Positions 1,358 to 59,272 of a stretch of 64,000 bases of DNA are shown here, in pieces. Origin of the DNA: an uncultured Cytophagales bacterium (GTDB lineage Bacteria; Bacteroidota; Bacteroidia; Cytophagales; Thermonemataceae); NCBI GenBank assembly GCA_937911505.1, contig CALEMF010000048.1, forward strand, positions 1 through 64,000, given 5' to 3'. The position numbers were made by a program, and so were the translations under genes. The notes under the pieces are model-generated. The model searched no databases. It saw nothing but the letters and a program-made list of their open reading frames with translations, and was not told where the DNA came from. Every line of letters starts with the position of its first letter. Position 1 is the first letter of the stretch.

Positions 1358-1366
1358 GCTTACTTC

Positions 1367-2056: not shown

Positions 2057-2072
2057 ATTAATCTTATTTTAG

Positions 2073-3356
2073 TTATTTCAATAAAGAGGCTATTTTAGGT
2101 ATACTTTTGATTTGTAAGAAAGCCATATTTCGAACAAATAACAAGTCACCCAAAAACCCAACAAAAGCATAAGAAATGACGGAGGCAAAGGCTGCTCCTT
2201 TTGCTCCGTAGTTTGGTATAAGCCAAAGATTGAGTGTAATATTGATACCTACCGCTAGAACCGCTTTGTATAAAGTGACAAAGGTCTTATTTTCTAAGGC
2301 CAGGTATCGATTGGTAATGTAACTGGTATTGGCGAATAAATTTGTAAATATATATATCTGCAAAATAACTACTGTCGGTGCGTAACGTTGTCCAAAACTA
2401 TTCATTACTATAAAATCTGCAAAAAATAATATACCCGAAAGCATGAATATACTGAACCATATGAGCGCTGAGTACAAGGTTTGAATATTTTGTAGGTACT
2501 TCTCTTGTGATATTTGCCTTGCTTCTATAACCTTTGGGAAAAATACTATAGCTACTACGTGAGGAATGTGAAAAAGTGCTTCAGATATTTTTACGCCTGC
2601 CGAATAATACCCTAAGACAGATTCATCTACAAAGTTCTTGAGCATAATTTGGTCTATGCGAAGATGAATGAGCATAGAAACATTCGAGAGCATAAAGAAT
2701 AAACCATCTTTAAGTAGCGTATCTGCAACCGATTTTTTAAAGGTAAAGGTTTTGATTTTTTCTTTCTTAGGGTGCTTTTGATAAAAAATCAAGAAAAATA
2801 ACGCAGTGGCTACAAACTCTAACAGGTGCAAAACCCCAAAGAAAAGAATAGAATACTGAAATACTAAAGCATACAGCTTGACAACAAAAACAAAGATAAA
2901 ACCAAAAAAGCGTGCAAAAGTAACTTGCTTTAGGTCGTTGATTGCTTGAAAAAAATAATCGAATACATCAAAAGACTGAAAAATAAACATAAACGACCAA
3001 ATCAGACAGAGGTTAAAAACTATGTCTAAGTCGATGTTGAGTAAATGTAGTGTCAATAGAAGGATTAGCATTAACACAACGGCAAAAACAATACGTAAAA
3101 TAATAGCAGTACCCAATATTTTACTTGCGGGGAGTTGTTTTTTTACCAGCTCTCTTACCACAATTACATCTAAACCAAGTGGTGCAAAAGCACTAAAAAT
3201 AGTAACAATAGCCAAAGCATAACTCCAAGCGCCGAATAGCTCAGGCTGTAAATAACGAGCAAGCCAAACAACAAAAATTAAGTTTCCACCAAGCCTCAAG
3301 AACTTATCTAAAAATAACCAAAGAATATTTTTTAGGTTTTTTCGTCTATTTTCCAT
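2073..3356 (-). CDS. Polysaccharide/oligosaccharide flippase (Wzx-like, MOP superfamily)
   Basis: About 427 residues, almost entirely hydrophobic helices, with the N-terminal pattern of O-antigen flippases: a basic start, then a helix with LGGNLIFVVWLARYLQPELFG, the usual signature of this family. It would move lipid-linked oligosaccharide across the inner membrane. An ATG at 3356 is preferred over a TTG one codon earlier. First gene of the three-gene glycan operon 3356-257. The 370-bp upstream gap has no gene and should hold the promoter. Confidence 0.85.
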   Translation of the reverse strand: MENRRKNLKNILWLFLDKFLRLGGNLIFVVWLARYLQPELFGAWSYALAIVTIFSAFAPLGLDVIVVRELVKKQLPASKILGTAIILRIVFAVVLMLILLLTLHLLNIDLDIVFNLCLIWSFMFIFQSFDVFDYFFQAINDLKQVTFARFFGFIFVFVVKLYALVFQYSILFFGVLHLLEFVATALFFLIFYQKHPKKEKIKTFTFKKSVADTLLKDGLFFMLSNVSMLIHLRIDQIMLKNFVDESVLGYYSAGVKISEALFHIPHVVAIVFFPKVIEARQISQEKYLQNIQTLYSALIWFSIFMLSGILFFADFIVMNSFGQRYAPTVVILQIYIFTNLFANTSYITNRYLALENKTFVTLYKAVLAVGINITLNLWLIPNYGAKGAAFASVISYAFVGFLGDLLFVRNMAFLQIKSIPKIASLLK

Positions 3357-3359
3357 CAA

Positions 3360-3673
3360 GTTTATACAGAGGTATTGTTAAGTTTTTATTGGAATAGAGT
3401 TAGATTAGTTTTTGGCTAATAAGGCTTGTTTAAAATCAGCGTTATTTCTGAATCTTCTTCAATCATTTATGTCGGATGTATCGTAGCCTATTGTCATTAT
3501 TTACCTTTTACTATCAGGGTAAATACCATCAATACTTTATGCACAAAATTTAAGAGCACAAAGGTAAGTGCTTTTCTCTAAACGAAGAATAACTCTATCA
3601 AGTATTTTGACTCACTGTGAAGATGGCAATGCTTTACTAGTATATTTTGGAAACCTATACCAACTACAAACAT
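3360..3673. other. Intergenic region, no gene seen
   Basis: AT-rich spacer between the start of the flippase gene and the terminator beyond the dps gene. No open reading frame, tRNA or clear repeat was recognised. It presumably holds the promoter of the leftward glycan operon. Confidence 0.5.
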
Positions 3674-3699
3674 AAAGCCTGAGTATTTACTCAGGCTTT
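3674..3699 (-). terminator. Terminator downstream of dps
   Basis: Near-perfect 12-bp inverted repeat AAAGCCTGAGTA / TACTCAGGCTTT with a 2-base loop, lying about 30 bases past the dps stop on the minus strand. The A/T-rich ends supply a T tract on either strand. Confidence 0.7.
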
Positions 3700-3727
3700 C
3701 GCTATTTTAATATAAAATGAAATATAC

Positions 3728-4195
3728 TTATTTATTATAAGCAGAGAGCATCCAAGTCGTTTTCTCTTGGGTTTGGATGTATTCAGTCATAAGGTCAACT
3801 GTACCTTCGTCGTTGGCGTCGCTAGCTACTTCTAATATTTTTCTTTCCTTTGAGATAAGTGTACTAAGGTTCTGTATCGTAGTTTCTACGGTACCTTTGG
3901 CATCTTTAATGTTTTTAGCCTCTTTTATTTCAGACTTTTCCATAAAATCAGAAAAAGCATGGAGCGGTGTATGCCCTAGGGTAAGGATACGCTCTGCTAC
4001 CTCGTCAATACTTTCGTTGGCTTGATTGTAAAGCTCTTCAAATTTAGCGTGTAACTCAAAAAAGCTATTACCGGTAATGTTCCAATGAAAGCCTCTAAGG
4101 TTTTGATAAAAAATTTCGTAGTTAGCTAAAAGGTCATTAAGGTGTTCTGCTAAGGCTGCTGCCTTGTTGGATTCAATACCTATCAGATTTTCCAT
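3728..4195 (-). CDS. dps: Dps family DNA-binding ferritin-like protein
   Basis: A 155-residue protein of normal Dps length. Dps forms a 12-subunit shell that stores iron, uses peroxide to oxidise Fe(II), and protects DNA during starvation or oxidative stress. The inter-subunit ferroxidase signature is clear: RGFHWNITGNSFFELHAKF (His and Phe/His region near residue 36-50), then Asp/Glu in SIDEVAERI. An ITLGHTP-type turn, LTLGHTPLHAFSDF, follows. Monocistronic, with its own terminator downstream. A peroxide-responsive promoter is expected but was not identified. Confidence 0.92.
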   Translation of the reverse strand: MENLIGIESNKAAALAEHLNDLLANYEIFYQNLRGFHWNITGNSFFELHAKFEELYNQANESIDEVAERILTLGHTPLHAFSDFMEKSEIKEAKNIKDAKGTVETTIQNLSTLISKERKILEVASDANDEGTVDLMTEYIQTQEKTTWMLSAYNK

Positions 4196-4300
4196 GTGTT
4201 TAATGTAGGTTTAGGTTGATGAATGTGTTTACTTAAAAATACAAGATAGTTTTTGATAATTCAAACGACTATTATGCTTCTGAGAAAATGTTTTTCTACG

Positions 4301-4885
4301 CTATTTATAGTGGTAAGAAAAGAAGAAATATAAGTAAAGCCATAGTATATCGACAAAGTGCCAATAAATAGTAACAAGCTTTAAGCGTAATTGATTGGGA
4401 GGGTTTACAGCATAAATAAAAGCATCTACGTACCTACTTTTGCGTATAGAATGCATAAAGACTAAAAGTAGTGCAATAATGCCTCCTACCAAGTGTAGTA
4501 TATGTAAACCAGAGATCACATATAAGAAGCTTCCAGATATTTTCCCGTTTTCAAAAAAGAAACCTTTATTTTTGAGTTCGCGCCAGCCTACATATTGTGT
4601 AATAATAAAAAAAACACCTAAAATAAGCGTAGTCCCTATCAAATACCTAAAAGCAAAAAAGTCTTCCTTTGAAAAAGCTTGATTGGCGTGATGTAACGTA
4701 AAACTACTAGCTAGCATAAAGAAGGTACTGATACCAAATACCTTTGGCAAATAGAAGTTTTCCCAATCTGCTCCCTCCTTACGTGCTACATACACGATGG
4801 TAAGTATAAGAAATGTAAAACTAATTCCTAAAAGACCACACCAAAGCATAAACTCCTGTGGCTCTCTTCGCTTCAACTTCAGCAT
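4301..4885 (-). CDS. Heme-copper cytochrome c oxidase subunit III
   Basis: 194 residues with five predicted membrane helices. It has the subunit III hallmarks: a SGLHILHLVGG helix with paired histidines near residue 126-130, and the closing IYWHFVDILWLYLYF helix with the conserved WHF-D-W pattern. Subunit III stabilises the catalytic subunit and shapes proton/O2 delivery in the inner membrane. It stands alone here, with no subunit I or II genes nearby, so the rest of the oxidase must be encoded elsewhere. It could be the shorter of two subunit III paralogues common in Bacteroidota. Confidence 0.88.
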   Translation of the reverse strand: MLKLKRREPQEFMLWCGLLGISFTFLILTIVYVARKEGADWENFYLPKVFGISTFFMLASSFTLHHANQAFSKEDFFAFRYLIGTTLILGVFFIITQYVGWRELKNKGFFFENGKISGSFLYVISGLHILHLVGGIIALLLVFMHSIRKSRYVDAFIYAVNPPNQLRLKLVTIYWHFVDILWLYLYFFFSYHYK

Positions 4886-5003
4886 GTATATAGGTTAATG
4901 GTTATGCTTTTCGCATGTAAACGGCTGGTCGGAGACCATTGTTTTAATACATAAGCCAGCAGCCTTTTAGGAACCGCTAGTCAATAAGAACGTACATACG
5001 TAT

Positions 5004-6644
5004 TTAAGCAATATTTTGTAAGTCCCTTACTAGTTCTTTGATTACTTCTTTATTATCAGGATCATAGCGCCAATTATTATCGAAGGCGTTTGTCACTTCT
5101 AAGTTTATTCTGTTGGCAATAGTAAGGCTATGAAACTGCGTATCTTTCTGTTGCTCTTGTTTCATATGTTTTACGACATCTTCACGAATATCAAACATTA
5201 CAAAATCAGATACTACCAACACGTCTGCTTCTTTATAATCATTAGTTTGTAATATGTTGATTGCTTCTATCAATGCAGGCGCTACGTCTGTACCTCCGTG
5301 AAAAGACATCGTCAGAAAGCGAATCAACTGATCCATAGAGTTGGTCAAGTCTAACAAATTGATCGTTTTGATGCCTATAGAAAAGTTGATCAAGAAAGCC
5401 TTTCTGTGTTCTTTTGCTGCCATTTTTAGAATAGCAAAACAGAGCGCTTTGGCTATTTGCTCAGGTGTACCTTCCATAGAGCCACTTGTATCGATACAGA
5501 CGATAAAAGGCCCTTTCTCCTTTCGCTTTATTTTTTGCTGTCTTATATGGTTGATCTTATTGCTGGTTACAAGGCTTTTTCCTTGATACTGAAAACTCAG
5601 CAGATTTTTATCAGCATACTTTTTTAAGAATACACTCTCTGTTTCGGGCAACCCCAAATAGGCAATCTCAGAGGGAAGTACATTAGGGAGGTAATTGTCT
5701 GCATGTACGCCGCCAATCTCAGTTTTCTTATCATAGTCGGTCACCCAAGCTTTATGTGTAATGATATTTTCATAGATTTCTTCCTCTATTTCGGTTTCTG
5801 CTTGGCGCATTTTTCCTAACGTGTCTGCTAGTGCTTGGATACTTTTTTCATTTTTAAGTACTTCTGCGTATTTCTTTAAGATATCAAAACCTGCCTCTTT
5901 CCAGTCACCACTCGAGATGTCCCAGAAGCGTCCAGTATCGTTGGTAAAAGGAGAAATGATAGAAACGAGCTTTTGAAACTCTTCTACCTTCGAGGAGAGC
6001 ATTTCGCCAAAGCTTTCTTTCTCTTTATTAAGCTGTTCTAGCTCATACCGAAGGCGTTTGGCCGTTAGTAATGAGCGCCACAAGGCTAGTAAATCTTCTA
6101 TGATGATCTCTAGTTGGGCTAGTTCTTCTTCATAAGCTTTTTCTTTGCGCTCCAATGCCTGTGCGTCGATAGGTTGAATGATGGTTTCAAACTTTTCCAC
6201 GTAGAAGTCAAAAGGAATTTCTGAGGAATCATACACCTCTCGTAGATAATTAATAAGGTGATACCAACTCCTTACCCAAAGAAAAGTAGGTTTGCCTATC
6301 CAGCGATTAATCTCTTTGATCTCTTCTTCGTAGGGGTTTTCTTTCTGGATCTTATCGTGCGTATCTCGCAGCCACTTAATAACATCTTCTAAAATTTGGT
6401 TACCTAAAGTGCTGTATTCTTGTGCTGTAGAAAGTACCTTGGGGGTTTCAAAAAGCTGATCCAGTGCTTCCTGTAAGTAGCTAAACTCTACGGATAGCTC
6501 TTGCTCTGTGAAGTCCTGTAGGTAAGTGTTTTGGTAACTTGGATTGATTTTTTGTTTAAGATAGTATACTAAGTAGCCTCGTGTAACTCTATCGAAGATG
6601 CTTCCAAATTCAATAAACTGGATAAAACTATCTTCTAAATGCAT
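5004..6644 (-). CDS. VWA domain protein, ViaA/CoxE-like
   Basis: 546 residues. The N-terminal two thirds is a charged, helical, coiled-coil-rich region. The C-terminal third (from about residue 375) is a von Willebrand A domain with a complete metal-ion-dependent adhesion site: CIDTSGSMEG (DxSxS), a Thr in FHGGTDVAPAL, and an Asp in VVSDFVM. The architecture matches ViaA-type proteins, which work with a MoxR-family AAA+ ATPase (RavA) in complex remodelling. No MoxR/RavA gene is adjacent, which is unusual for the family. Cytoplasmic, with no signal peptide. The role is inferred from domain order only. Confidence 0.75.
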   Translation of the reverse strand: MHLEDSFIQFIEFGSIFDRVTRGYLVYYLKQKINPSYQNTYLQDFTEQELSVEFSYLQEALDQLFETPKVLSTAQEYSTLGNQILEDVIKWLRDTHDKIQKENPYEEEIKEINRWIGKPTFLWVRSWYHLINYLREVYDSSEIPFDFYVEKFETIIQPIDAQALERKEKAYEEELAQLEIIIEDLLALWRSLLTAKRLRYELEQLNKEKESFGEMLSSKVEEFQKLVSIISPFTNDTGRFWDISSGDWKEAGFDILKKYAEVLKNEKSIQALADTLGKMRQAETEIEEEIYENIITHKAWVTDYDKKTEIGGVHADNYLPNVLPSEIAYLGLPETESVFLKKYADKNLLSFQYQGKSLVTSNKINHIRQQKIKRKEKGPFIVCIDTSGSMEGTPEQIAKALCFAILKMAAKEHRKAFLINFSIGIKTINLLDLTNSMDQLIRFLTMSFHGGTDVAPALIEAINILQTNDYKEADVLVVSDFVMFDIREDVVKHMKQEQQKDTQFHSLTIANRINLEVTNAFDNNWRYDPDNKEVIKELVRDLQNIA

Positions 6645-6722
6645 ATTTACTGGTTAAGGTGAAAACGGTTCTAGTATCTTAACCAGTATCATTAAGCAGG
6701 TGTTTAAGTCAAATAAAAACTG

Positions 6723-9386
6723 TTAGTTATTAGTACATTGTAGCTGGGCAAGCTCTTCTTCTGTAAAGATGTACTTTTTTAAAATGTGCCCTTCAATATT
6801 ACAGTAGGTTACCGAAATGGCCTCAACTCTACCTACTTCAAAAGACTTTTCGCACAAAAAGAGCGGTGCTTGAGGGGAGCCAATATTGGTAATATAACGA
6901 TACTTGAATGGGATGATTATGCCTTTCTGGTTGCTAAATACTCCAGAGACCTCTCCGGTACGTCCTTGAAAGATTATTTCCTCGTTTGGGGAAGCAGTAT
7001 CAGGAGATTTAATAAACTGTATGTCATCAAAAGTAATATTTAAAGCGGTGCTGTCTGACATATTTAAATGCTTAAACATCCAGTTACCTTCTTTTTGTAC
7101 CAAGACTACTTCATCCTTCCAAGGAATAATTTGCTGATAATCAAACGGTAAAATTTCTTCTTGATCAAGGTTGATCAGTCCTATGCTACCTTCTTTGATT
7201 ACTTTAAAGACTTGAGCATCTTCTCTAGTACAGGGTTGAGGTATTTGGTCGAAAGAAGGCGCTATAAGGGTAGCCGTTTTGGGTTCGTATAAGCCAAACT
7301 GCTGTTTATATAAAATAGGCACATAGCCTTTTGTAAGCTCTCCTATACCATCGTACTTAGCGGGGAGTAATTTTTTACCAAGGCTATCAACAAGCCCAAA
7401 CTTCCCTTTTGCACCTATGGCAATAAGGTTATCCTGTAATACGTGGATGGATTCATAGTAAGGCTTCACAATAAGTTTTCCTTGTTGGTTGTACAAGCCT
7501 TTCTTACCTATGGTATTCTCTACTAAGAGAAAATACTGCTCACTTTGCTTATTACCTTGCTCAATGGCTACTTTGGGAAAACCTTTTAGCGCTACTTCTG
7601 TACCGTTGCGAAATTTTCCTGTTACTTTACGACCCTTAAAAAACAGCGTAACATCCTTGAACAAAGCGATTGAATCATAAGCAAAAGGGGCTTTCTCTCT
7701 TCCTTGCCAATCAAATAAGCCCCACTTTTCTTCTTCTTTGGCAGCAAAGTGTTGATCATTGGCAATAACGTATTGAAAGTTTTGCTGGATTAAGGGCGTT
7801 CCTGTGCTGCGATAAACACGCCAGTCATTCTCTTCTCGTGTAATCCATCCCTTGTAGGTCGCTTGAATTTGATCGAAAGAGACAGGTAAAATAGTGCGCT
7901 TATTCTGCGACAGAATGCCGTACTTACCTTTAGAGGCTACTTTCACGTAGTGGTTCCCCAACCATTGTATATCGTCATAAACAGCATTGATAGAGATTGT
8001 TCGAGATTGTTTGAGGCGGTTAATTAATGTAGTGTTATCTGAAAACGTATAAAGACTATCTTGTTGGAAGATGATAAAACTTTTCCCTTGTAGTGAGATA
8101 TCATCGTAGCGACAAGGAACCACCTGATAGTTATGTAAGTTCATAAGCCCCCATTTTCCTCTTTGTTTTACCTTTACAAACAAGTTATTAAGCGGCTCGA
8201 TATCCTCAAAGATAGGCGGAAGCACATTAAAACCCTCTACGTGCAGTAGCCCATAACGGATATTCATACGAACAAGCATGAGATGGTTATTATAGGCTTC
8301 TACCTCATCATACTGAGCGGGAGATATTTTCTCGCCTGTCTTATCAATAATACCCAACTTACCCTCTTTAATAAAGGAAAGCCAAGGGGTTGTAATGGGC
8401 TCACATTTGTAAGGAGGCAGTATAGAATCGTACTGGCAAGGGATTTTTCTTACACTTAGTAAGTCGGAAAATCCGTACAAGTCATTATGAAAAACAGGTA
8501 TAATAAGATTATTACTTGCCTCAAGGTATTTTTCTTTATAGTGGCTTATGTCAAGGTGAGCATATTTCTTGAAGAAAGTAGCGGATTTCCCTTTGGCCGC
8601 AGATAAGTGATACAACCAAGCAAGAGCACGCTTTACCGCGGTACTCTGAGGAAAACGCCGTATGAAACGTTCGTAGCTCTCAATGGTATGATCGGTTGTA
8701 GTAATTTCAAAAATACGCCTCTGGGCTACGTTAACAGCTTGCGAGTTAGGATATTGTAGTAAGAATCGCTCGTAGCTTCGTAGTGTCTTCTCTTTTGTAA
8801 GACTGTCGAATACAAATAAATCATAGTAATACTGTGCATTTTGCGCCTGCTTAGAGTCGGGGTAGTTTTTTAAAAAGGTCTCAAAACTTTCTATAGAATT
8901 AGTGCGCTGTGCTGCTTGAAAAGCAAGGCTATCTCTCACTTCTGTAGCCTTTTTTACATAAGGAGAGGTTGCGTAAGTATCGATAAAGTGCTGGTGTTGT
9001 TGAAGATCATTTTGATCGTGCAACGTTGAATAGGCAGCTACTTCTAATTGACTTTTTAATGATAAAGCGCTATCAAGGTCTATACCGATACGTTTATAGA
9101 GCTTTTCTGCTTTGCTGAGGCTTTCATATTGGTGAATGGAACGAGTAAGATGTAAGTAAGCGGAGTCTATAGAATACTGCTGTAGAGAGTCATTTGAAAA
9201 ATAAACGGCATACAAAAAATGCAAGGCTGGATTATCATCGTCATCAACCGAATACTGATCTAAGAGAACCTTTGCTGCTTCGTAGTTACCTTGTTGTAGT
9301 TGCTTAAATGCTTTACCAATACCATCAGCCCATAGCCAAGAAGATAGTAGGCAAATAATACTCCAGCTCCAAAACACGTTTTTCAT
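6723..9386 (-). CDS. Exported WG-repeat protein with N-terminal TPR-like region
   Basis: 887 residues. It begins with a signal peptide (basic start, hydrophobic core, cleavage near SWLWADG). Residues ~25-260 hold helical repeats of TPR type, including three or four YERFL..YPNSQAV-like units typical of envelope-associated TPR modules. From about residue 300 to the end come many ~45-55-residue WG (KWGLMN-type) beta repeats: GKLGIIDKTG, IRYGLLHVEG, GKWGLMNLHN, GKYGILSQNK, EKWGLFDWQG and others. WG repeats are common in Bacteroidota and of unknown function; a scaffold or ligand-binding role is usually guessed. Likely periplasmic or surface located. The gene stands between bshC and the VWA gene on the same strand, with gaps of about 80-110 bases. 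Confidence 0.82.
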   Translation of the reverse strand: MKNVFWSWSIICLLSSWLWADGIGKAFKQLQQGNYEAAKVLLDQYSVDDDDNPALHFLYAVYFSNDSLQQYSIDSAYLHLTRSIHQYESLSKAEKLYKRIGIDLDSALSLKSQLEVAAYSTLHDQNDLQQHQHFIDTYATSPYVKKATEVRDSLAFQAAQRTNSIESFETFLKNYPDSKQAQNAQYYYDLFVFDSLTKEKTLRSYERFLLQYPNSQAVNVAQRRIFEITTTDHTIESYERFIRRFPQSTAVKRALAWLYHLSAAKGKSATFFKKYAHLDISHYKEKYLEASNNLIIPVFHNDLYGFSDLLSVRKIPCQYDSILPPYKCEPITTPWLSFIKEGKLGIIDKTGEKISPAQYDEVEAYNNHLMLVRMNIRYGLLHVEGFNVLPPIFEDIEPLNNLFVKVKQRGKWGLMNLHNYQVVPCRYDDISLQGKSFIIFQQDSLYTFSDNTTLINRLKQSRTISINAVYDDIQWLGNHYVKVASKGKYGILSQNKRTILPVSFDQIQATYKGWITREENDWRVYRSTGTPLIQQNFQYVIANDQHFAAKEEEKWGLFDWQGREKAPFAYDSIALFKDVTLFFKGRKVTGKFRNGTEVALKGFPKVAIEQGNKQSEQYFLLVENTIGKKGLYNQQGKLIVKPYYESIHVLQDNLIAIGAKGKFGLVDSLGKKLLPAKYDGIGELTKGYVPILYKQQFGLYEPKTATLIAPSFDQIPQPCTREDAQVFKVIKEGSIGLINLDQEEILPFDYQQIIPWKDEVVLVQKEGNWMFKHLNMSDSTALNITFDDIQFIKSPDTASPNEEIIFQGRTGEVSGVFSNQKGIIIPFKYRYITNIGSPQAPLFLCEKSFEVGRVEAISVTYCNIEGHILKKYIFTEEELAQLQCTNN

Positions 9387-45909: not shown

Positions 45910-46106
45910 GACCAAGAGCTTTTTAGGTTGTTGATGTATCAAAGCTCGTGGATAGGGGCTATATAATGAAGGGTACGCCGAGCGAGTGGCTACTTATCAG
46001 GATGAAACGTAGGATGGGGGAGATCAAGCGTTTGTGGTGGGAATAATGCTAGAAAGGCTTGCTTGAATAATTCTACCTTTTACTCATTGACAATTAAGAG
46101 CATGTC

Positions 46107-46305
46107 ATGTTTAAAAATTAAATTCTTCATAATTAATACTTTACGAAATTTTCACCACTTATCCTTCAATTTGCCTTTCGTTCATTTTTTGACTTCGTCG
46201 AGCTCGGCGCAGCCAAATCCAAAGCTTCCGCCCACAAACCAGTCCACCTCCCCGCTGGATTTTCAGACCCGCGCACTTATAATATTCTTAAAAACAAACA
46301 GTTAG
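46107..46305 (+). repeat. Dispersed intergenic repeat, copy 2 (~200 bp)
   Basis: Shortest member of the repeat family. It shares with copy 1 the left edge TTTAAAAATTAAATT, TACGAAATTTT, CCTTTCGTTCATTTTTT, then GACTTCGTCGAGCTCGGCG, AAATCCAAAGCTTCCGCCC, the CCCGCTGGATTTTCAGACC block, and the right edge CTTAAAAACAAACAG. The central palindrome array is reduced compared with copies 1 and 4. It marks the left border of the immunity island; the rest of the 45910-46358 stretch shows nothing else. Confidence 0.85.
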
Positions 46306-46358
46306 AGAAAATTTAAACCTGCTTTAAGGTGCACAAAGGTGAAGAGGGTTAAAAATAC

Positions 46359-46512: not shown

Positions 46513-47112
46513 TTACTTTTCTGGTGAATAGGGCATAGCAGATTTGTGAACAACGATTCGTAGTTTATTATCCTTATCTTTTACGTAACCTAGCGTATAT
46601 TCTACTTTTACTTCGTCGCCTTCGGTAGTAGTAAAGTAATAGTTACCCATTGCTACTGCCATATTGCAACTGTTATTGATGATGCCGCTATTTTCCCAAC
46701 GGACGTTTGTCCAAGGTTTTATAGCAAACCCTTTGTCTTCTGGGTAAGTTTCATTACCACCTACAAAGTAGGAGAGTGCGCCATCAAAGCTTCCACGGAA
46801 TTGATCGACTGAAGCCAAGGTTGGCTTAAACAATACCGAGCTAAGGTCGTAGCCGTATAAGTCTTGTATATGTTCCATAGCAGCTTGTTTATAATCGCCT
46901 TTATCAGTGTAAACCTTTCCTATTTTGACGATACCTTCTCCCCACTCTTCTTGCGCCTTGATAACCTCTGCTTCTGTGATACATTCTGAAGAGTAAAGGG
47001 CAATGGTGTTCCCCTCTTTATTGTCAGTAGTTTCTTTTTCTTGTGGTGGTTGTTGTGTGCAGGATGCTGCAATAAATAGTAGTGAGATAAAAAAAAATGT
47101 GAGTGGTCTCAT
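46513..47112 (-). CDS. Lipoprotein, possible NTF2/SnoaL-like fold
   Basis: 199 residues. Lipoprotein signal peptide ending in a lipobox (LFIAASC, Cys at about residue 18), then an acidic/polar linker. The core has ECITEAEVIKAQEEWGEGIV, KQAAMEHIQDLYGYDLSSV, FVGGNETYPEDKGFAIKPW, and YYFTTTEGDEVKVEYTLGYV. The alternating helix and strand pattern, with WGEGIVKIG near the start, suggests an NTF2/SnoaL-like fold; the family is uncertain. It is likely anchored in the periplasm and has no identifiable partner nearby. Just inside the left edge of the immunity island. Confidence 0.6.
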   Translation of the reverse strand: MRPLTFFFISLLFIAASCTQQPPQEKETTDNKEGNTIALYSSECITEAEVIKAQEEWGEGIVKIGKVYTDKGDYKQAAMEHIQDLYGYDLSSVLFKPTLASVDQFRGSFDGALSYFVGGNETYPEDKGFAIKPWTNVRWENSGIINNSCNMAVAMGNYYFTTTEGDEVKVEYTLGYVKDKDNKLRIVVHKSAMPYSPEK

Positions 47113-47846: not shown

Positions 47847-48395
47847 CTAGATCTTGGTTAAATCCATATTATCAAAATATCTAATTCCGGTAAACCCTTC
47901 CTTATCCAGCGCTTTCTTGAGTGGCTCAGTCACAAATACTATCTCTGGACGATCGAGTAATCTAAAAAGATCCAATTCATATAATTTATCTTCTCGCACC
48001 ACTAGCTTCGTGATTTGGTCAGGTTTGTTTACTTTCTCATATACGGTATAGGTAGACTGCTCGTAATCCATACAGTTCCTAAGTCCGATGATGTTTAATA
48101 ACCAATATTTTTTATCGGCGATAGTTACCTCAATAAAATTGATTGGCTGATGCTTTACATTTTGTTCTATAAATAATCGTAACGGTTCGCTTACGAAATA
48201 TTCTGTAGAGCCTGTTCCTAATAGGTCTGGATATAGCTTTGTCTTATTTTTCAAAACCATTTTACGCAAGTCAACTGAATGCTCTTCTATTCTCTCTCCA
48301 TCAATAATGGCATCAATAACATCCCAAGAATGACCGGTATTTTCGATGTAGGCATGTTTTTCACCAGTGTATGGAGATATTTTGTAAACTTTCAT
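47847..48395 (-). CDS. Imm11/DUF1629-like immunity protein
   Basis: 182 residues, cytoplasmic, no signal peptide. The sequence ends in the pattern typical of Imm11 (DUF1629): LDLFRLLDRPEIVFVTEPLK, then KALDKEGFTGIRYFD, that is, a strand, VS/VT-E-x-L, a helix, and TGhxF. An earlier part has EYFVSEPLRLFIEQNV and YWLLNIIGLRNCMDYEQS. Immunity proteins of this type neutralise toxins from polymorphic secretion systems by direct binding. Short subtype (~185 residues) shared with the genes at 53259 and 56239. No cognate toxin is encoded nearby. Confidence 0.6.
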   Translation of the reverse strand: MKVYKISPYTGEKHAYIENTGHSWDVIDAIIDGERIEEHSVDLRKMVLKNKTKLYPDLLGTGSTEYFVSEPLRLFIEQNVKHQPINFIEVTIADKKYWLLNIIGLRNCMDYEQSTYTVYEKVNKPDQITKLVVREDKLYELDLFRLLDRPEIVFVTEPLKKALDKEGFTGIRYFDNMDLTKI

Positions 48396-50078: not shown

Positions 50079-50886
50079 TTAGGGTAAGCGCGTGACTTCC
50101 ACTTTTATTTCCCAACCTTTTTCATAAGCCCTGCTGGTGATACTCAGAATTTCCCAAGGTTACCATCCTCGTACTTCTCTAAAACGATTGTCTTCTGTAG
50201 TATCATAGTATTGTCTATTTTTTTCAAGTGCCTCTTTTAACTGTTTATTGAAAGAATCCTCACTACCAAAGTAGTATGCTTTTAGAAGCTCTTGTCTTGG
50301 CTCATCAATCATTGAAACATAGTTTTTCAACTCAGGATCATAGTTATACTTTTCTTTTGAGCTTATTGTATATTCATTATAAAGTTGCTCACTCGGCTTT
50401 GTTTCGTTTTTTATACATCTTGTAAGTCGGATGGTGTTCATGCTCTCCATAGTTTAAAAACGTACTATTTTCTTCTAGGTTAAGAATTAAGTCAGTTACT
50501 TGTTCGCAGCGACAAATAGAAGCATAGATATACGCACCCATGAGTGTAAATACTTTATCGTAACCTGTGCTTGTGTTAGTGAGTTCGACTTCTTTATCTG
50601 CTACCCAAAGTTTCAGGGGTTTCCCATTGTTATCAAGTGACCTAATATGCCCATAAATACCTTGCATGGCTAGTTTAAAATAGTGTCTTAACGTATCTAG
50701 GTCAGTTCCTCCATCTAACATTTTGAGGGTAAGCCACTTCACACTATTTCTATACAAGTAAAATGGCTTATCTCCTCCCTTATCTTGTGCCACTTTAATC
50801 ATTTCTATTTCTTTAGTCAAAGATCTTTCTAACTCCCCGTGGAAGAATTCTTTGTCGAAATTTTCAAAGCCAATCAAATTATCCAT
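50079..50886 (-). pseudogene. Imm49-like immunity gene, broken by frameshift and stop
   Basis: A paralogue of the intact gene at 52247-53101. The first part (ATG at 50886) reads FENFDKEFFHGELERSL, then LAMQGIYGHIRSLDNNGKP (the intact gene has LLMAMQGIYGHIKTLSNFGK), then AYIYASICRCEQVTDLIL. It hits a stop just past a run of six A, while the next frame continues with LLKAYYFGSEDSFNKQLKEA and NRQYYDTTEDNRFREVRGW. That frame then has an in-frame TAA and the natural C-terminus PWEILSITSRAYEKGWEIKV ends at 50079. One base indel plus one nonsense change, so inactive unless recoded. Confidence 0.78.
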
Positions 50887-51217
50887 TATCAAAAGTATTT
50901 GTCTTTGGATGATATGTCACTTTCATTAATGTAGGCACTTCACGTTCATCTTCTTGAAATAAGTTTGCTATCATTTCAACACTCTCTACTCCTTTATCTA
51001 AAAAATCAAACATACTGTCATCATCAACATTGTACTTCTCACTAGACGCGTCATTTACTTCGTGCGTACCGACTATTTGATCATTAATATTGTAGATTGA
51101 ACAATACATATAGATAGATTTTACCTCTGTACAATTGTTTCCTACATACACAAAGGTATCTTCCACTATGCTAGTAGTTAGTTTCATAAATCGGTTGCCA
51201 AAGGCTTTAACCTTCAT
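50879..51217 (-). CDS. Small unknown protein, candidate immunity protein
   Basis: 112 residues, acidic, no signal peptide. Middle part DDDSMFDFLDKGVESVEMIA; the end TLMKVTYHPKTNTFDNG has the K-x-T-Y-x-P-x-T-x-x-F-D shape seen at the C-terminus of YezG/DUF600-like immunity proteins, but no closer match is seen. Its stop overlaps the start of the Imm49-like pseudogene by 8 bases, so the two formed an operon. Begins 15 bases after a tiny basic frame (51331-51233). Confidence 0.5.
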   Translation of the reverse strand: MKVKAFGNRFMKLTTSIVEDTFVYVGNNCTEVKSIYMYCSIYNINDQIVGTHEVNDASSEKYNVDDDSMFDFLDKGVESVEMIANLFQEDEREVPTLMKVTYHPKTNTFDNG

Positions 51218-53258: not shown

Positions 53259-53825
53259 TCAAATTATTTTAAACTCTCCCAGAGAAATAAAGCTCAGTCC
53301 CGTGATATTATTTTCTTCAATAGCTTGCTTAAACTTTTGATTGACAAAAATGGCTGTTCTTATTGGGGTAATTCTAAATATATTTCTGCGAGAAAGCATT
53401 TCTTCTTTTAAGACTAGCTTGGCTATACTATTAATAACTGTGGAGCCTTCGAAAGTATTATAGACTGAATTTTCTTTATCAAAACAATCCATGTTTTCTA
53501 GGATATTGAAAGCATAGTATTTTTGATTAGCTGGATCGGCAGATTTAAAAACATTTATACCACAAAATTCAAAAAGCTCTTTTTCAAACTGTTGTTCGAG
53601 CAGGTTTTTTAACCTCTCCGACACTATTGGTACGCCTGGATCGTAGAAATCAACCAGCAGTTTTTCATCATTATAGTTTATTCTTATCTCAAAATTATCT
53701 TCATTAGCAAGCGACTTTCCTTTTCTAATCTTAGAAGCAACTTTGGGATCATATTTTATCAGTGAAAAGGGTTTTCTCCCATCTTTGAAGTAATTGTTAA
53801 TAGCATAAAAATCCATCACTTTCAT
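53259..53825 (-). CDS. Imm11/DUF1629-like immunity protein (short subtype)
   Basis: 188 residues. C-terminal part RNIFRITPIRTAIFVNQKFK, then QAIEENNITGLSFISLGEF is the Imm11 end pattern (VN/VS-x-x-h, helix, ITGhxF). Middle has VPIVSERLKNLLEQQF and YYAFNILENMDCFDKENSVY, matching the same positions in the gene at 47847. Followed by no gap problem: the upstream long-subtype gene ends 27 bases before its start, so the two are probably one transcript. Confidence 0.6.
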   Translation of the reverse strand: MKVMDFYAINNYFKDGRKPFSLIKYDPKVASKIRKGKSLANEDNFEIRINYNDEKLLVDFYDPGVPIVSERLKNLLEQQFEKELFEFCGINVFKSADPANQKYYAFNILENMDCFDKENSVYNTFEGSTVINSIAKLVLKEEMLSRRNIFRITPIRTAIFVNQKFKQAIEENNITGLSFISLGEFKII

Positions 53826-54564: not shown

Positions 54565-54960
54565 TTACCCCTTCATTTTACTACTTATCTCTCTAATGAT
54601 AGCCATCAGTTCTGCACGCTCCTTACGCATCTCTGCTAGTTCTGCTTTTAGCAGCTCGATTACCTCGGAGGCGGCATGATAATGAACATCTCCGTTTGTA
54701 TAACCGGTGTTACTATTACAATGATCATTGGTATTGGTAGTATTGAAGTTAATTTGCTTTTCGACACCTAATAGGTCAGTAACGGTTGTTTCGAACAGCT
54801 CTGCTAACTGCTCTAGTCGCTCTATGGTAAAGCTTTTCGTTTGGTTTGCCTCTATTTTGCTGTAGGCATTTTGGGAAATGCCTAGCTCTTCTGCTACAAA
54901 TTCTTGGCTATAGTTGAGTCTTAGCCGATGTTTTTTGATGTTGTCGCCTAGTACATTCAT
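54565..54960 (-). CDS. XRE-family transcriptional regulator
   Basis: 131 residues. Helix-turn-helix at ~8-62: IKKHRLRLNYSQEFVAEELG, then ISQNAYSKIEANQTKSFTIE and RLEQLAELFETTVTDLLG. A polar linker follows, then a C-terminal coiled coil (EVIELLKAELAEMRKERAEL) likely for oligomerisation. Its first ~35 codons and upstream DNA are identical to the second XRE gene at 56805-57065. Lies at the head of the XRE-immunity-immunity operon, suggesting control of immunity gene expression. Repeat copy 3 sits 38 bases upstream of its start. Confidence 0.88.
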   Translation of the reverse strand: MNVLGDNIKKHRLRLNYSQEFVAEELGISQNAYSKIEANQTKSFTIERLEQLAELFETTVTDLLGVEKQINFNTTNTNDHCNSNTGYTNGDVHYHAASEVIELLKAELAEMRKERAELMAIIREISSKMKG

Positions 54961-55086
54961 TTGAGGGAGCGTTTATTGGTATAATATCTAATAGTATACT
55001 TAAAAACTAAATTCTGTATAGTTCACAGGCTGCAAAGTACTTACTACTTGTGCTTCTATTTATCTTCTGTTCATTTTTTGACTTCG
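54851..55086. repeat. 236-bp exact direct repeat, left copy (XRE 5' end and leader)
   Basis: Identical by eye, base for base, to 56956-57191 (offset 2105). It covers the first ~36 codons of the XRE gene, its leader, and the left part of the dispersed repeat up to TTTTTTGACTTCG, where the two copies diverge. Lower but clear similarity extends further into the XRE gene. Confidence 0.92.
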
Positions 55087-55265
55087 TCAAATACCAATTA
55101 GCTATGATTCTTGATAAGTTGAGCTACCAGCGAGCTTGACGAAGCCAACCGAGCTTACGAGTTTAATGTAACTAAAATCCCTAGCTTCTACTCCTGAAAT
55201 CAGCCCATTGTCCTGCTAGACTTTCAAACTAGCGCACATGTTTTGGAATTTAAAATAAATAATCA
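54998..55265 (+). repeat. Dispersed intergenic repeat, copy 3 (~270 bp)
   Basis: Edge TACTTAAAAACTAAATTC; block CTTCTGTTCATTTTTTGACTTCG; a diverged palindrome region with GCGAGCTTGACGAAGCC; a worn copy of the right block (GTCCTGCTAGACTTTCAAACTAGCGCAC); and right edge TTTAAAATAAATAA. The most diverged member on its right half. It fills the gap 54961-55284 between the XRE gene and the next immunity gene. Confidence 0.8.
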
Positions 55266-55284: not shown

Positions 55285-55926
55285 TCAAATGTATACATAA
55301 TTCATGTATCGTTCAAAATAAGCTCCTGTAATACCATATTCTTCCATCTTATTTTTAAGCCCTTCTGAAATCAAAATTTCTACATTGTATGGAGATCTTA
55401 AAACATCAACCCTTTTGAAAAGAACTAGTTTTTTGGGTTCTACGAAATCTGGTAAATCTACGCGATCCTTGTCCTTGAGATGCACCTGTTTATTCTCCTC
55501 AGAGAAATCCACAAAAACAGAATGATCAAAATCAATTAACTCGACACAGTTATCAATTAAGTGCATAAAATGATAACCCTCTGATACTTCGCCCGTTTTT
55601 AACTCAATAGATGTTTTATAAAACCTAACTCCATGTATGTTAACTTGCCCCAGTAATTCTTTAAATTTTTTACTCACAAATATACCAAGTGATTTGGCAG
55701 GAAGATACGAACTCAGAACATCGGTTAAAATAGCCCCTTTTTTTAACCTGAAGTTTTCTAAATTAGGCTCTATTTGAGGAAAAGACCGATAATCTAATAT
55801 TTTAAAATTGTTTTGTTTTTTATAGTAGTCTTTAGGAATGTCAAGTTGTTCCCATACGCCCACTTCTTCTAGCGAAGTCGAAGGACACAAAGTATAATAA
55901 TTTATCGAATTCATATTATTTATCAT
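55285..55926 (-). CDS. Imm11/DUF1629-like immunity protein (long subtype)
   Basis: 213 residues. Contains FRLKKGAILTDVLSSYLPAK, LGIFVSKKFKELLGQVNIHG, VELIDFDHSVFVDFSEEN, and a C-terminus LISEGLKNKMEEYGITGAYF with the ITGhxF end. These match the long-subtype layout of 51455 and 53852. Starts at 55926, or at a second ATG four codons on. Lies between the two direct-repeat copies, followed by the XRE leader. Confidence 0.58.
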   Translation of the reverse strand: MINNMNSINYYTLCPSTSLEEVGVWEQLDIPKDYYKKQNNFKILDYRSFPQIEPNLENFRLKKGAILTDVLSSYLPAKSLGIFVSKKFKELLGQVNIHGVRFYKTSIELKTGEVSEGYHFMHLIDNCVELIDFDHSVFVDFSEENKQVHLKDKDRVDLPDFVEPKKLVLFKRVDVLRSPYNVEILISEGLKNKMEEYGITGAYFERYMNYVYI

Positions 55927-56238
55927 TTTGGTGATTTACCTTTTAAACTCAGCAAACAACTTACTACCTTGTGTTCATAGAGGTTTAGAATCGCTGTTAG
56001 GCAAAGTAACTCTTCCTCAAGACCAAGTAAGTGATGATAGAGCGTTAGACTTTACTAAGGCTGTTGGTCTTAAAGTTCCGCGTCAGCAAGTTAAGTGAAA
56101 TGGGTTGATCTCCTTCCCAACCTGAATCAGTACATAAAACACTTTGAGCCTTTGAGAAATCCTTTGTACACCTTTCATAAAGGGTTTCTTAGCGTAATTA
56201 GATAAGGCTAGAAGAGGACATTGTTTATCAACGTCTAA
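55927..56238 (+). other. Gap with a possible decayed plus-strand coding remnant
   Basis: On the plus strand, one frame gives LPCVHRGLESLLGKVTLPQD then QVSDDRALDFTKAVGLKVPR before a stop. One frame over, the sequence continues with VKWVDLLPNLNQYIKHFEPL then RNPLYTFHKGFLSVIR and a stop. Together they read like one protein C-terminus with a frameshift near 56095. The family was not recognised. It runs opposite to the surrounding immunity genes. Confidence 0.3.
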
Positions 56239-56808
56239 TTAAAAGGTTGATTTTGATAAGGGTCTAAAAGTTACCCCCTTTAAATTTGCGGCATCAATTA
56301 AGCTCTTTAATTGCTCACTAAGTACTACATTCGTTCTCATTTCTTCAAAGCGATATATGTCTACATCTAACAAATTATCTTGCCTTATGACGAGCTTATC
56401 AATACCTATAACTCTTCCGGTTGATAACTGTACAACTTGAGATTTGGTAAAGTCAATAGGAGATTTAAGCTTTAGCGGGTTCAATAAAAAATAATCCAGA
56501 TTCTTTTTGCGCTGGCAAATAAGGGTTACTGGCACGAGTTCGACTTTGTTCTGAACATGTTTTAATAATATATCAGCGAATTTTTTTGATACAATATCAT
56601 AATTACTGATTGCCAATATTATGTCACCGACTATTTTATTTTTCACATAGAAGATAAGGTCATTGCTTGAGTATTTCTTTAAAGACATTCCTAGCTGGTG
56701 CTCGGCTATATCTACAACATCTACGTCCATCTCTTTAGGCAGCTTATGACGATCAATAAAACACTCCTCTTCTATAATGTCAGCTTGTAAAGTATATAGT
56801 TCTTTCAT
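56239..56808 (-). CDS. Imm11/DUF1629-like immunity protein (short subtype)
   Basis: 189 residues. Features: KKFADILLKHVQNKVELVPV, LDYFLLNPLKLKSPIDFTKS, KLVIRQDNLLDVDIYRFEEM, and an end RTNVVLSEQLKSLIDAANLK then GVTFRPLS, the Imm11 finish. The KLVIRQDNL..(L/V)D(L/I)(F/Y)R segment is shared with 47847 (KLVVREDKLYELDLFR). Its ATG overlaps the stop of the truncated XRE gene (ATGA), so it is translationally coupled to it. Confidence 0.6.
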   Translation of the reverse strand: MKELYTLQADIIEEECFIDRHKLPKEMDVDVVDIAEHQLGMSLKKYSSNDLIFYVKNKIVGDIILAISNYDIVSKKFADILLKHVQNKVELVPVTLICQRKKNLDYFLLNPLKLKSPIDFTKSQVVQLSTGRVIGIDKLVIRQDNLLDVDIYRFEEMRTNVVLSEQLKSLIDAANLKGVTFRPLSKSTF

Positions 56809-57065
56809 TGTATATAGCCAGTGCTATCATTATGGTCGTTCGTAGTATTAAAGGTGATATGCTTTTCAATACCCAGCAGGTCATTGACGGTTGTCTCAAA
56901 AAGCGCTGCCAACTGCTCTAGTCGCTCTATGGTAAAGTTTTTCGTTTGGTTTGCTTCTATTTTGCTGTAGGCATTTTGGGAAATGCCTAGCTCTTCTGCT
57001 ACAAATTCTTGGCTATAGTTGAGTCTTAGCCGATGTTTTTTGATGTTGTCGCCTAGTACATTCAT
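56805..57065 (-). CDS. Truncated XRE-family regulator fused in operon with an immunity gene
   Basis: 86 residues. The helix-turn-helix is intact and almost the same as in the 54565 gene (EANQTKNFTIERLEQLAALF vs EANQTKSFTIERLEQLAELF). The protein stops at STGYIQ, just where the full-length paralogue goes on (NTGYTNGDVHYHAASEV) into its coiled coil. The stop overlaps the next gene's start (ATGA). So the DNA-binding part is kept, while the oligomerisation tail was replaced by the incoming immunity gene. It may bind the same operator without its normal partner interface. Confidence 0.8.
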   Translation of the reverse strand: MNVLGDNIKKHRLRLNYSQEFVAEELGISQNAYSKIEANQTKNFTIERLEQLAALFETTVNDLLGIEKHITFNTTNDHNDSTGYIQ

Positions 57066-57191
57066 TTGAGGGAGCGTTTATTGGTATAATATCTAATAGT
57101 ATACTTAAAAACTAAATTCTGTATAGTTCACAGGCTGCAAAGTACTTACTACTTGTGCTTCTATTTATCTTCTGTTCATTTTTTGACTTCG
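56956..57191. repeat. 236-bp exact direct repeat, right copy (XRE 5' end and leader)
   Basis: Second copy of the block at 54851-55086, 2105 bases away in the same orientation, covering the XRE start and leader and entering repeat copy 4. The pair flanks two immunity genes and would allow deletion or amplification by homologous recombination. Confidence 0.92.
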
Positions 57192-57365
57192 CTGAACTCC
57201 ACTTCGTTTCGGTTCTTGATGAACCGAGCTTCTGGCGAGCTCAACGAAGTCAACCGACGTAGGAGCTCAGCGAAGCTAAATCCAAAGCTCCTACCCACGA
57301 AGCTTACCCACCTCCTCGCTGGATTTTCAGGCCAACACACTTATTTTAAGCTTGAAAAATAAATG
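57103..57365 (+). repeat. Dispersed intergenic repeat, copy 4 (~265 bp)
   Basis: Left part identical to copy 3; the central part returns to the copy 1 form, with GAACTCCACTTCGTTTCGGT, GGTTCTTGATGAACC hairpin, CGAGCTTCTGGCGAGCTC, and AAATCCAAAGCTCCTACCC. Right block CCTCGCTGGATTTTCAGGCC is well conserved. It is the right edge of the immunity island; htpG begins its 3' end about 95 bases further. The remainder of 57066-57460 holds only the htpG terminator. Confidence 0.85.
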
Positions 57366-57460: not shown

Positions 57461-59272
57461 TTATGATACCAAATTGATACTCCGCTCTATAAACTTCGTC
57501 AGGCGATTGCCTTTTAGTAAGTCTTGAGAGAGTAGTGCAATGTCGTATAGTTGCTTGATAAGGCGTGCTTGCTCTGCTTCTTCCTCTGTTTTTACAATTT
57601 TATCGATCAAGGTATGGTTACCGTTGATAGCGATTTGGTGTTGCGAAGGCATCATAAAACCGCCCATTCCTTGTGCATCAGCCATCTCCTGCATACGTCG
57701 CATATACTCAGGCAAGGTAATAACTACAGGAAGCTCGTCGGTAGGAAGTGCCTCCACGGTGATGGTAAGCTTATCGTCACCCAAAGCTTTCTTGAAAGCT
57801 TCAATGATGCTTTCTTGCTCTTCTTTAGAAAGCACTACTTCGGCGCTCTCTTCTTTGGAAATGAGCTTATCTACTACATCTGCATCTACACGCTTCAACT
57901 GTGTCTTCTCTAGGTTTCTTTCTAAGATGCCAATAAAATGATTGTCGATAGGACCATCAAACTGTAAAATGTCGTAATTACGCTTCTTGGCGGACTGAAT
58001 ATAGGTATCTTGCTTTTCGGCGTCGTTGGTAAAAAGCCAAATGAGGTTTTCGTCCTTATCCGTCTGTAACGGCTTTACTTTTTCCTTGTATTCTTCAAAG
58101 GTATGGTAGGCGGCTTCTACGTTTTTCAACAAGCAGAATTTTTCTGCTTTACTGTAAAACTTCTCGTCTGTAACCATTCCGTATTTCACAAAAAGTCCGA
58201 TACTATCCCACTTTTCCTCAAAAGCCTTGCGGTCGTTTTTGAAAAGCTCCTGCAGTTTATCAGCTACCTTTTTAGTAATATAAGTATTGATTTTCTTCAC
58301 GTTGGCGTCTGCCTGTAAGTAGCTCCGCGACACATTGAGTGGAATATCAGGGGAGTCGATTACACCGTGGAGTAGCATCAAAAACTCAGGTACTACATCT
58401 TTCACCTCATCGGTAATGAATACTTGGCGAGAGTAAAGCTGTATCTGGTTGCGTTGTACCTCGAAGTTATTGCGAATCTTCGGAAAGTAGAGCACACCCG
58501 TAAGCTCAAAAGGAAAGTCTACGTTCAAATGTATCCAGAAAAGCGGCTCTTCTGCCATCGGATAAAGCTCCTTGTAGAAGTTTAAGTAGTCTTCGTCGCT
58601 TAGTTCGTTGGGGGCTTTTGTCCAAAGAGGCGCGGTGTTGTTGATGACCTCTTCTTCTAACACTACGGTGACGGGTAAAAACTTTGCGTATTTGTTAAGA
58701 ATGCCTTGTAGTCTTGCCTTGTCCAAGAACTCTTCTGAATCTCCAGCAATGTGCAAAACGATATCTGTGCCTTGCGTCTCTTTCTCGACAGAGGTGATGT
58801 CAAATTCAGTATCTCCCTCACATACCCACTTTACTGGCTCCGTGTCTTTTTGGTACGACTTTGTAATGATCTCTACTTGCTTGGCCACCATAAAAGCTGA
58901 GTAGAAGCCCAACCCGAAATGCCCAATAATTTGTTTGTCCTCGCCTTTATCTTTATACTTTTCGATGAAGTCACTAGCTCCTGACATAGCGATTTGGTTA
59001 ATATAGTATTTGATCTCTTCGGCAGTCATCCCAATCCCATTGTCGCTTACCGTAATGGTTTTTGCTTCTGCATCAAAAGAGACGTTCACTTTCAGATTTT
59101 CGATGTCGCCCTCATATTCTCCTAAGGAACCTAATTTTTTCAATTTCTGACAAGCATCTATCGCGTTCGATACCAATTCTCTCAAAAATATCTCGTGGTC
59201 AGAGTATAAGAACTTCTTGATGATGGGAAAGATATTTTCCGTGTGAATTGACAAAGTACCCTTTTCTTGCAT
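57461..59272 (-). CDS. htpG: Molecular chaperone HtpG (Hsp90)
   Basis: 603 residues, standard for HtpG. The N-terminal ATPase has FLRELVSNAIDACQKL, VSDNGIGMTAEEI, and IGHFGLGFYSAFMVA (the Bergerat fold ATP lid). The middle domain has GVLYFPKIRNNFEVQ, and SPDIPLNVSRSYLQ. The C-terminal dimerisation domain follows. The cytosolic ATP-dependent chaperone assists client folding under stress. The divergent upstream region (59273-59550) should hold a heat-responsive promoter; a GTGACAATCTGACA element is seen there but its role is not proven. Confidence 0.96.
   Translation of the reverse strand: MQEKGTLSIHTENIFPIIKKFLYSDHEIFLRELVSNAIDACQKLKKLGSLGEYEGDIENLKVNVSFDAEAKTITVSDNGIGMTAEEIKYYINQIAMSGASDFIEKYKDKGEDKQIIGHFGLGFYSAFMVAKQVEIITKSYQKDTEPVKWVCEGDTEFDITSVEKETQGTDIVLHIAGDSEEFLDKARLQGILNKYAKFLPVTVVLEEEVINNTAPLWTKAPNELSDEDYLNFYKELYPMAEEPLFWIHLNVDFPFELTGVLYFPKIRNNFEVQRNQIQLYSRQVFITDEVKDVVPEFLMLLHGVIDSPDIPLNVSRSYLQADANVKKINTYITKKVADKLQELFKNDRKAFEEKWDSIGLFVKYGMVTDEKFYSKAEKFCLLKNVEAAYHTFEEYKEKVKPLQTDKDENLIWLFTNDAEKQDTYIQSAKKRNYDILQFDGPIDNHFIGILERNLEKTQLKRVDADVVDKLISKEESAEVVLSKEEQESIIEAFKKALGDDKLTITVEALPTDELPVVITLPEYMRRMQEMADAQGMGGFMMPSQHQIAINGNHTLIDKIVKTEEEAEQARLIKQLYDIALLSQDLLKGNRLTKFIERSINLVS

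What the first reader, a model, noticed from the sequence alone, without database searches (positions are those of the whole stretch)
56805..57065. XRE regulator cut after its DNA-binding domain and coupled by ATGA to an immunity gene
The two XRE proteins agree through the helix-turn-helix, then the second ends at GYIQ where the first continues into a coiled coil. The stop overlaps the start of the following Imm11-like gene by four bases. This is what one expects if new immunity genes are captured downstream of a common XRE leader. The truncated regulator might act as a competitor at a shared operator.
Basis: partly seen in the sequence, partly recalled or inferred. Interest (0 to 1): 0.65.

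Follow-up and report, generated by a model that had tools for sequence, protein, structure and literature searches.

The report
Short regulator leading an immunity gene
In a bacterial cluster of genes that protect against rivals' toxins, one of two near-twin DNA-binding regulators has lost its tail and runs straight into a protection gene, which looks like the product of ordinary DNA shuffling inside a known kind of cluster.

Summary
XRE2 (56805-57065, -) keeps a complete XRE/HTH_3 domain, stops inside the disordered linker and lacks the 40-residue C-terminal helix of XRE1 (54565-54960, -). Its TGA overlaps the ATG of an Imm11 gene (56239-56808) by four bases. A 236-nt tract (126 nt leader + 110 nt coding) is identical in both copies, with 67% and 82% identity on either side, so the copies were homogenised recently (gene conversion or crossover). 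Much of the leader is a dispersed intergenic repeat with at least 40 copies in this genome; the piece special to the XREs is about 40 nt before the ATG, with a 21-bp dyad found exactly at these two sites only. The surroundings are a polyimmunity locus dominated by Imm11, of a described kind. Imm11a looks like an orphan: four of six relatives elsewhere sit directly behind AHH-type nuclease genes. The 'capture platform' reading is only weakly supported. Both cases are in this one island, with different junctions. The other eight intact paralogues keep the helix and none was seen leading an Imm11 or Imm49 gene. No Imm11/Imm49 relative was found in 128 loci around HTH relatives elsewhere. Competition at a shared operator is possible but untested. 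Modest interest.

The parts
56805..57065 (-). XRE2: 86-aa HTH_3 regulator, ends inside the linker (GYIQ*)
   Evidence: (HTH_3 48.9 bits)
56805..56808 (-). ATGA: stop of XRE2 overlapping the start of Imm11a
56239..56808 (-). Imm11a: full-length Imm11 immunity protein, probable orphan
55285..55926 (-). Imm11b
   Evidence: 42.3 bits
54565..54960 (-). XRE1: 131-aa full-length paralogue with C-terminal helix
53852..54511 (-). Imm11c
   Evidence: 24.4 bits, cut-off 22.1
53259..53825 (-). Imm11d
   Evidence: 73.5 bits
52247..53170 (-). Imm49a
   Evidence: 55.5 bits
51455..52120 (-). Imm11e: below the Pfam cut-off (14.6 bits) but aligned over its whole length to Imm11c and Imm11b
50160..50892 (-). Imm49b, split between two frames (probably broken)
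47847..48395 (-). Imm11f
   Evidence: 53.3 bits
56956..57191 (-). 236-nt tract identical to 54851-55086 (126 nt leader + 110 nt coding), XRE2 copy
54851..55086 (-). 236-nt identical tract, XRE1 copy
57105..57362 (-). dispersed intergenic repeat copy that forms most of the XRE2 leader (ends approximate)
55000..55257 (-). dispersed intergenic repeat copy upstream of XRE1 (ends approximate)
57084..57104 (.). imperfect 21-bp dyad GTATACTATTAGATATTATAC, candidate operator, 18 nt before the XRE2 ATG
54979..54999 (.). same dyad before XRE1

Best explanation
This is a polyimmunity locus in which a 'repeat + leader + XRE 5' half' segment exists twice and has been homogenised by recombination. In the XRE2 copy the 3' end of the regulator gene was replaced, at the linker/helix border, by an orphan Imm11 gene whose relatives stand behind AHH-type nuclease toxins. 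XRE2 now works as the first cistron of a small operon: an HTH-only protein that should still recognise the same leader DNA as XRE1, with Imm11a translated from the overlapping ATG. Shown: the anatomy, the mosaic identity, the intact HTH, the full-length Imm11a, and the toxin-side position of its relatives. Inferred: that XRE2 is made and binds the dyad, that Imm11a is co-transcribed and translationally coupled, and that the shared leader puts both immunity sets under the same regulator.
For: 236-nt identical run with 121/180 and 107/130 identity to its sides; 0 differing codons in codons 1-36 against 12 in codons 37-66, 8 of them synonymous, so protein-level selection does not explain the identity. 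The eight other intact paralogues in this genome carry the C-terminal helix, so the short form is derived. No coiled-coil remnant downstream. Imm11a is full length. Imm11a relatives were found in 6 genomes besides this one, of 390 searched in the order; in 4 of these 6 the gene just upstream matches AHH (E 7e-16, 2e-10, 3e-5, and a weak 0.024 on a fragment at a contig end). No AHH match in the own genome. Same-strand Imm11/Imm49 array with no recognised toxin in 46.5-57.1 kb. HTH-only relatives are common in Bacteroidota (54 of 72 loci under 100 aa), so an HTH-only product can be a working regulator.
Against: No expression or binding data. Bacteroidota use Shine-Dalgarno signals little (recalled), so the overlap need not mean coupling. 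The dyad is weak: 149 of 2000 shuffled leaders do as well, and no similar dyad stands before the paralogues. The AHH search detected the family in only 2 of the 4 genomes where an AHH-like neighbour had been read, so a diverged toxin in this 93%-complete draft is not excluded. No genome of the same genus was available, so the ancestral arrangement was not seen.
Confidence: 0.6

Rival explanations
1. Relic: XRE2 is a 3'-truncated, non-functional duplicate. The immunity gene happened to land there and only uses the leader as a promoter and translation entry; the HTH protein does nothing.
For: Truncated and broken family members exist in this genome: C89:10022-10369 with an internal stop, C90 fragments. 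A neighbouring immunity gene, Imm49b, is split between frames.
Against: The HTH is intact with no stop or frameshift, and the changed codons 37-66 are mostly synonymous (8 of 12). However, the first 36 of the 86 codons lie in the recently converted tract, so their preservation is not informative.
Confidence: 0.3
2. Competitor: XRE2 lacks the presumed oligomerising helix and antagonises XRE1 at the shared leader, so that it de-represses or fine-tunes both immunity operons.
For: Identical residues 1-42 and identical leader with an exact shared dyad. The closest solved relatives are SinR, a two-part regulator that depends on its C-terminal oligomerisation part (recalled).
Against: No binding data. 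HTH-only relatives commonly stand before an HD-domain gene (20 of 58 scanned members), so lack of the helix does not mark an antagonist. One case only.
Confidence: 0.12
3. General capture platform: immunity genes are repeatedly recruited behind this XRE leader at a fixed breakpoint.
For: Two different immunity sets follow the same homogenised leader.
Against: The two junctions differ (4-nt overlap after codon 86 against a full ORF plus 53 nt). No Imm11 or Imm49 gene was seen behind the other eight intact paralogues in the stretches read. No Imm11/Imm49 relative in 128 loci with HTH relatives. No immunity family is named among the 25 listed Pfam families of 57 and of 31 downstream genes (19 and 16 further families not listed).
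Confidence: 0.08
4. Assembly artefact: a short-read assembler joined two loci through the 236-nt repeat.
For: Draft of 123 contigs. Copies of the dispersed repeat lie within about 200 nt of contig ends in several contigs (C4, C44, C84, C92, C96, C105, C116).
Against: The XRE2/Imm11a junction lies about 148 nt beyond the tract and in no repeat found in 46-60 kb, so swapping tails through the tract would leave one truncated and one full-length XRE all the same.
Confidence: 0.05

Closest known systems
Homogeneous/heterogeneous polyimmunity loci (Zhang et al. 2012, PMC3482391; passages read)
   Same: Tandem same-strand immunity genes without toxin genes between them; Imm11 is named there as forming prominent homogeneous polyimmunity loci and as partner of AHH, HNH and SHH toxins; Imm49 is listed too.
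   Different: The passages read mention no XRE regulator inside such loci; here two lie within the array. No XerC/D recombinase was noticed next to it in the genes read.
Homologous recombination between tandem immunity paralogues, esaG/tipC (Garrett et al. 2022, PMC9484751; abstract and passages read)
   Same: Mosaic identity blocks in an immunity array; there too recombination hits a non-immunity gene (DUF5079) and the intergenic DNA upstream of it.
   Different: Here the block is a regulator leader and not the immunity gene itself, and one regulator copy is cut.
Orphan immunity arrays by sequential displacement of effectors in Vibrio cholerae (PMC5361080; [quoted passage not shown] passages read)
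   Same: Immunity genes kept without their toxins.
   Different: Neither text, as far as read, has an HTH regulator as the first cistron; no T6SS context was noticed here.
SinR / PezA type XRE regulators (PDB 1b0n, 3qq6, 5tn0, 2p5t by sequence)
   Same: N-terminal XRE HTH.
   Different: Similarity stops at the HTH; the C-terminal part of XRE1 is a single long helix after a disordered linker, not the SinR or PezA C-terminal domain (the latter recalled).

Membership tests
Polyimmunity locus | four or more immunity genes in tandem | tested here: met
   Imm11a, b, c, d, f and Imm49a above Pfam cut-offs; Imm11e and Imm49b below
Polyimmunity locus | same orientation, small gaps | tested here: met
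   all on the - strand; gaps of -62 to 324 nt between neighbours from XRE2 to Imm11f, the larger overlaps inside the split Imm49b
Polyimmunity locus | no intervening toxin gene | tested here: met
   no Pfam toxin match among the genes of 46.5-57.1 kb; five ORFs there have no Pfam match at all, so an unknown toxin is not excluded
Imm11 (PF07791) | profile match over the curated cut-off | tested here: met
   Imm11a 34.4 bits against 22.1
Imm11 (PF07791) | neutralises a cognate toxin | not testable with these tools
   inferred only from neighbours of relatives
XRE/HTH_3 (PF01381) | profile match over the curated cut-off | tested here: met
   XRE2 48.9, XRE1 49.5 bits against 23
Own-genome XRE + coiled-coil paralogue family | C-terminal long helix after a variable linker | tested here: not met
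   missing in XRE2 only, of the ten intact members
Truncated competitor regulator | binds the same operator and lowers activity of the full-length form | not testable with these tools
   identical leader and recognition region only

The most novel reading that the evidence does not exclude
A leader-plus-HTH cassette acts as a homogenised regulatory header that recombination places before different orphan immunity genes. Its HTH-only form is a dominant modulator of the full-length regulator, so the whole immunity array is tuned by the dose of truncated against full-length XRE.
Probability: 0.08. Interest if true: 0.55.

Novelty: new member of a known kind. Interest (0 to 1): 0.28.

Why it matters
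If the regulatory reading held, it would say how orphan immunity arrays, whose expression control is little described in the texts read here, get switched on together, and that gene conversion keeps the switch uniform. As it stands it is one clear example of recombination reshaping a polyimmunity locus through a shared regulator leader.

Tried and rejected
Rejected: XRE2 as a frameshifted full-length gene (no coiled-coil remnant in any frame of the window). Rejected: a plain block duplication (flanks and downstream genes diverged far more than the tract, order of Imm11 sub-groups reversed). Rejected: the whole leader as an XRE-specific operator region (most of it is a dispersed repeat). Led nowhere: Rfam scan of 45.9-57.5 kb, no match; RNA fold of the dyad region no better than shuffles (z -0.02); XRE1 alone against genome contigs and viral contigs, no relative; XRE2-Imm11a DNA against plasmids, no match; a literature search on truncated XRE competitors and one on dispersed repeats in Bacteroidetes listed nothing that looked relevant.

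Rows dropped: 15 of 72 loci had no same-strand ORF of 60 aa or more within 450 nt, so 57 were scanned, together with Imm11a (58 members). In one search, 10 of 56 loci gave no tblastn hit with XRE2; of the 42 with a downstream ORF, 32 were within 450 nt, one a duplicate, so 31 were scanned. The 128 loci hold a few places twice (for example L027/L218, L028/L228). One search scored 40 of 75 candidates, so 40 is a lower bound for the repeat. Start codons were picked by a simple rule.

Full report
What is there. On the minus strand, XRE2 (57065-56805, 86 aa) is followed with a four-base ATGA overlap by a 189-aa gene (56808-56239). XRE2 matches HTH_3 at 48.9 bits and the next gene matches Imm11 at 34.4 bits (cut-off 22.1), almost end to end on the profile. 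Going on along the strand come Imm11b, then XRE1 (131 aa), Imm11c, Imm11d, Imm49a, a weak Imm11 relative (Imm11e), a 112-aa gene without a match, a split Imm49 copy, two more genes without a Pfam match and Imm11f. No gene in this stretch has a Pfam toxin match. The array sits between a lipoprotein-like gene (46513-47112, no Pfam match) and a large gene at 57461-59272 that reads like htpG (my reading, not scanned).

The truncation. An AlphaFold2 model of XRE1 (21-row alignment, mean pLDDT 78.9, pTM 0.50) has the HTH in residues 4-64, a disordered linker (68-93 below pLDDT 50) and a confident helix at 91-130. XRE2 ends at residue 86, so it loses the helix and keeps the HTH. The family in the own genome has ten intact members above 140 bits, plus C89:10022-10369 with an internal stop; XRE2 is the only intact one without the helix (one member, on C37, runs into a contig end within the helix). 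The lost part is not found elsewhere in the window. Imm11a is not truncated: its nearest relative elsewhere aligns from residue 4. So the XRE-derived sequence ends and the immunity gene begins within a few bases of the stop. A shared TATACAA-like stretch just before the junction in XRE1 and XRE2 (sequences printed) could be a trace of microhomology, but it is short.

The shared leader. The two XRE regions share a 236-nt identical run: 126 nt of leader and 110 nt of coding sequence. Identity is 121/180 columns on the upstream side and 107/130 on the downstream side; 10,000 column shuffles gave at most 86 (shuffling ignores that neighbouring columns are not independent). Codons 1-36 have no difference, codons 37-66 have 12, of which 8 are synonymous. 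That pattern fits recent gene conversion or crossover between the two copies, not uniform divergence.

What the leader is made of. The first 80-90 nt of the 119-nt leader are a dispersed repeat: 40 scored matches of 75 candidates in the own genome, mostly 70-80% identical. An 18-copy alignment shows a modular element with conserved 5' and 3' blocks and a variable middle, often at contig ends. A common leader is therefore partly a common repeat. Between the repeat and the ATG lies a 21-bp imperfect dyad; it occurs exactly at only these two places in the genome, and with two mismatches at two more. As a dyad it is unremarkable: 149 of 2000 shuffles do as well. No similar dyad stands before the paralogues.

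Is this XRE a capture platform? Both immunity sets behind this leader are in this one island. Their genes are at most about 27% identical over long alignments and come in opposite sub-group order: the a/d/f type first after XRE2, the b/c/e type first after XRE1. The other eight intact paralogues stand mostly next to genes that look like housekeeping genes by eye; two have a less usual neighbour: C46 a DUF2625 gene downstream and C89 an unassigned 1091-aa gene upstream. In other genomes the HTH is common: 75 of 390 genomes of the order at E 1e-8 or better, the own genome counted. Of 46 loci re-read, 41 encode a protein of 100 aa or more. In a wider, mainly Bacteroidota set, however, 54 of 72 loci have proteins under 100 aa, with an HD-domain gene as the commonest neighbour (20 of 58 scanned), and one of these, in Pedobacter, also uses a 4-nt overlap. 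Profiles of Imm11 (two sub-groups) and Imm49 built from the window and from Imm11a's relatives found nothing in 128 such loci (857 kb), while finding the window's own Imm11 and Imm49 genes. The platform reading is therefore not supported beyond this island; the sampled relatives are mostly 30-55% identical, and no same-genus genome was available.

Where Imm11a came from. Relatives were found in six other genomes of 390. In four of the six, the gene just upstream on the same strand matches AHH (E 7e-16, 2e-10, 3e-5, and 0.024 on a fragment at a contig end); in one it is a Barstar-family gene, and in one no such gene was seen. AHH is listed as an Imm11 partner by Zhang et al. 2012 (PMC3482391, passages read). 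The own genome gave no AHH match; the same search found AHH in two of the four genomes where an AHH-like neighbour had been read, so a diverged copy is not excluded. Imm11a is thus probably an orphan immunity gene in which XRE2 now holds the place of the toxin.

Mechanism. Most likely XRE2 is the first cistron of a two-gene unit, still able to recognise the shared leader, with Imm11a translated from the overlapping start. Whether XRE2 represses, competes or does nothing is open. The closest solved relatives, by the HTH only, are SinR and PezA.

Comparison and verdict. The island meets the tested features of a polyimmunity locus (definition), with Imm11 in the majority. Recombination between paralogues in immunity arrays, including a non-immunity gene and its upstream DNA, is published for esaG/DUF5079 (PMC9484751; abstract and passages), and orphan arrays for Vibrio (PMC5361080; abstract). 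The new detail is an XRE regulator copy cut and joined to an immunity gene; in the searches made no listing pointed to the same thing, but they cover only an open-licence library. New member of a known kind; interest about 0.28.

Noticed in passing
window 57105-57362, 55000-55257, 46100-46330 and at least 37 further places in the own genome: Dispersed modular intergenic repeat of about 210-310 nt with conserved end blocks and a variable middle made of short GAGCTC-rich units; copies lie at many contig ends. No Rfam match in the window region.
   Followed up: partly
window 50160-50892 (-): Imm49 relative split between two overlapping frames; the parts match consecutive stretches of the neighbouring Imm49 gene, so it looks broken.
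   Followed up: partly
G000:C89:10022-10369 and C90:7012-7277: Interrupted and fragmentary copies of the same XRE family elsewhere in the genome.
   Followed up: no
L022 (G000:C89) 989-4899: 1091-aa gene without a significant Pfam or NCBIfam match followed closely by two small genes and then an XRE paralogue (5103-5636); could be a secreted protein with immunity genes.
   Followed up: partly
window 55928-56098 (+) and the 312-nt gap between Imm11a and Imm11b: Unexplained gap with a short opposite-strand ORF without a Pfam match.
   Followed up: no
L190 (G000:C55) 5789-7056: Another Imm11 gene followed by a CPCC cysteine-rich gene, outside the island and with no XRE family match on its contig.
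   Followed up: partly
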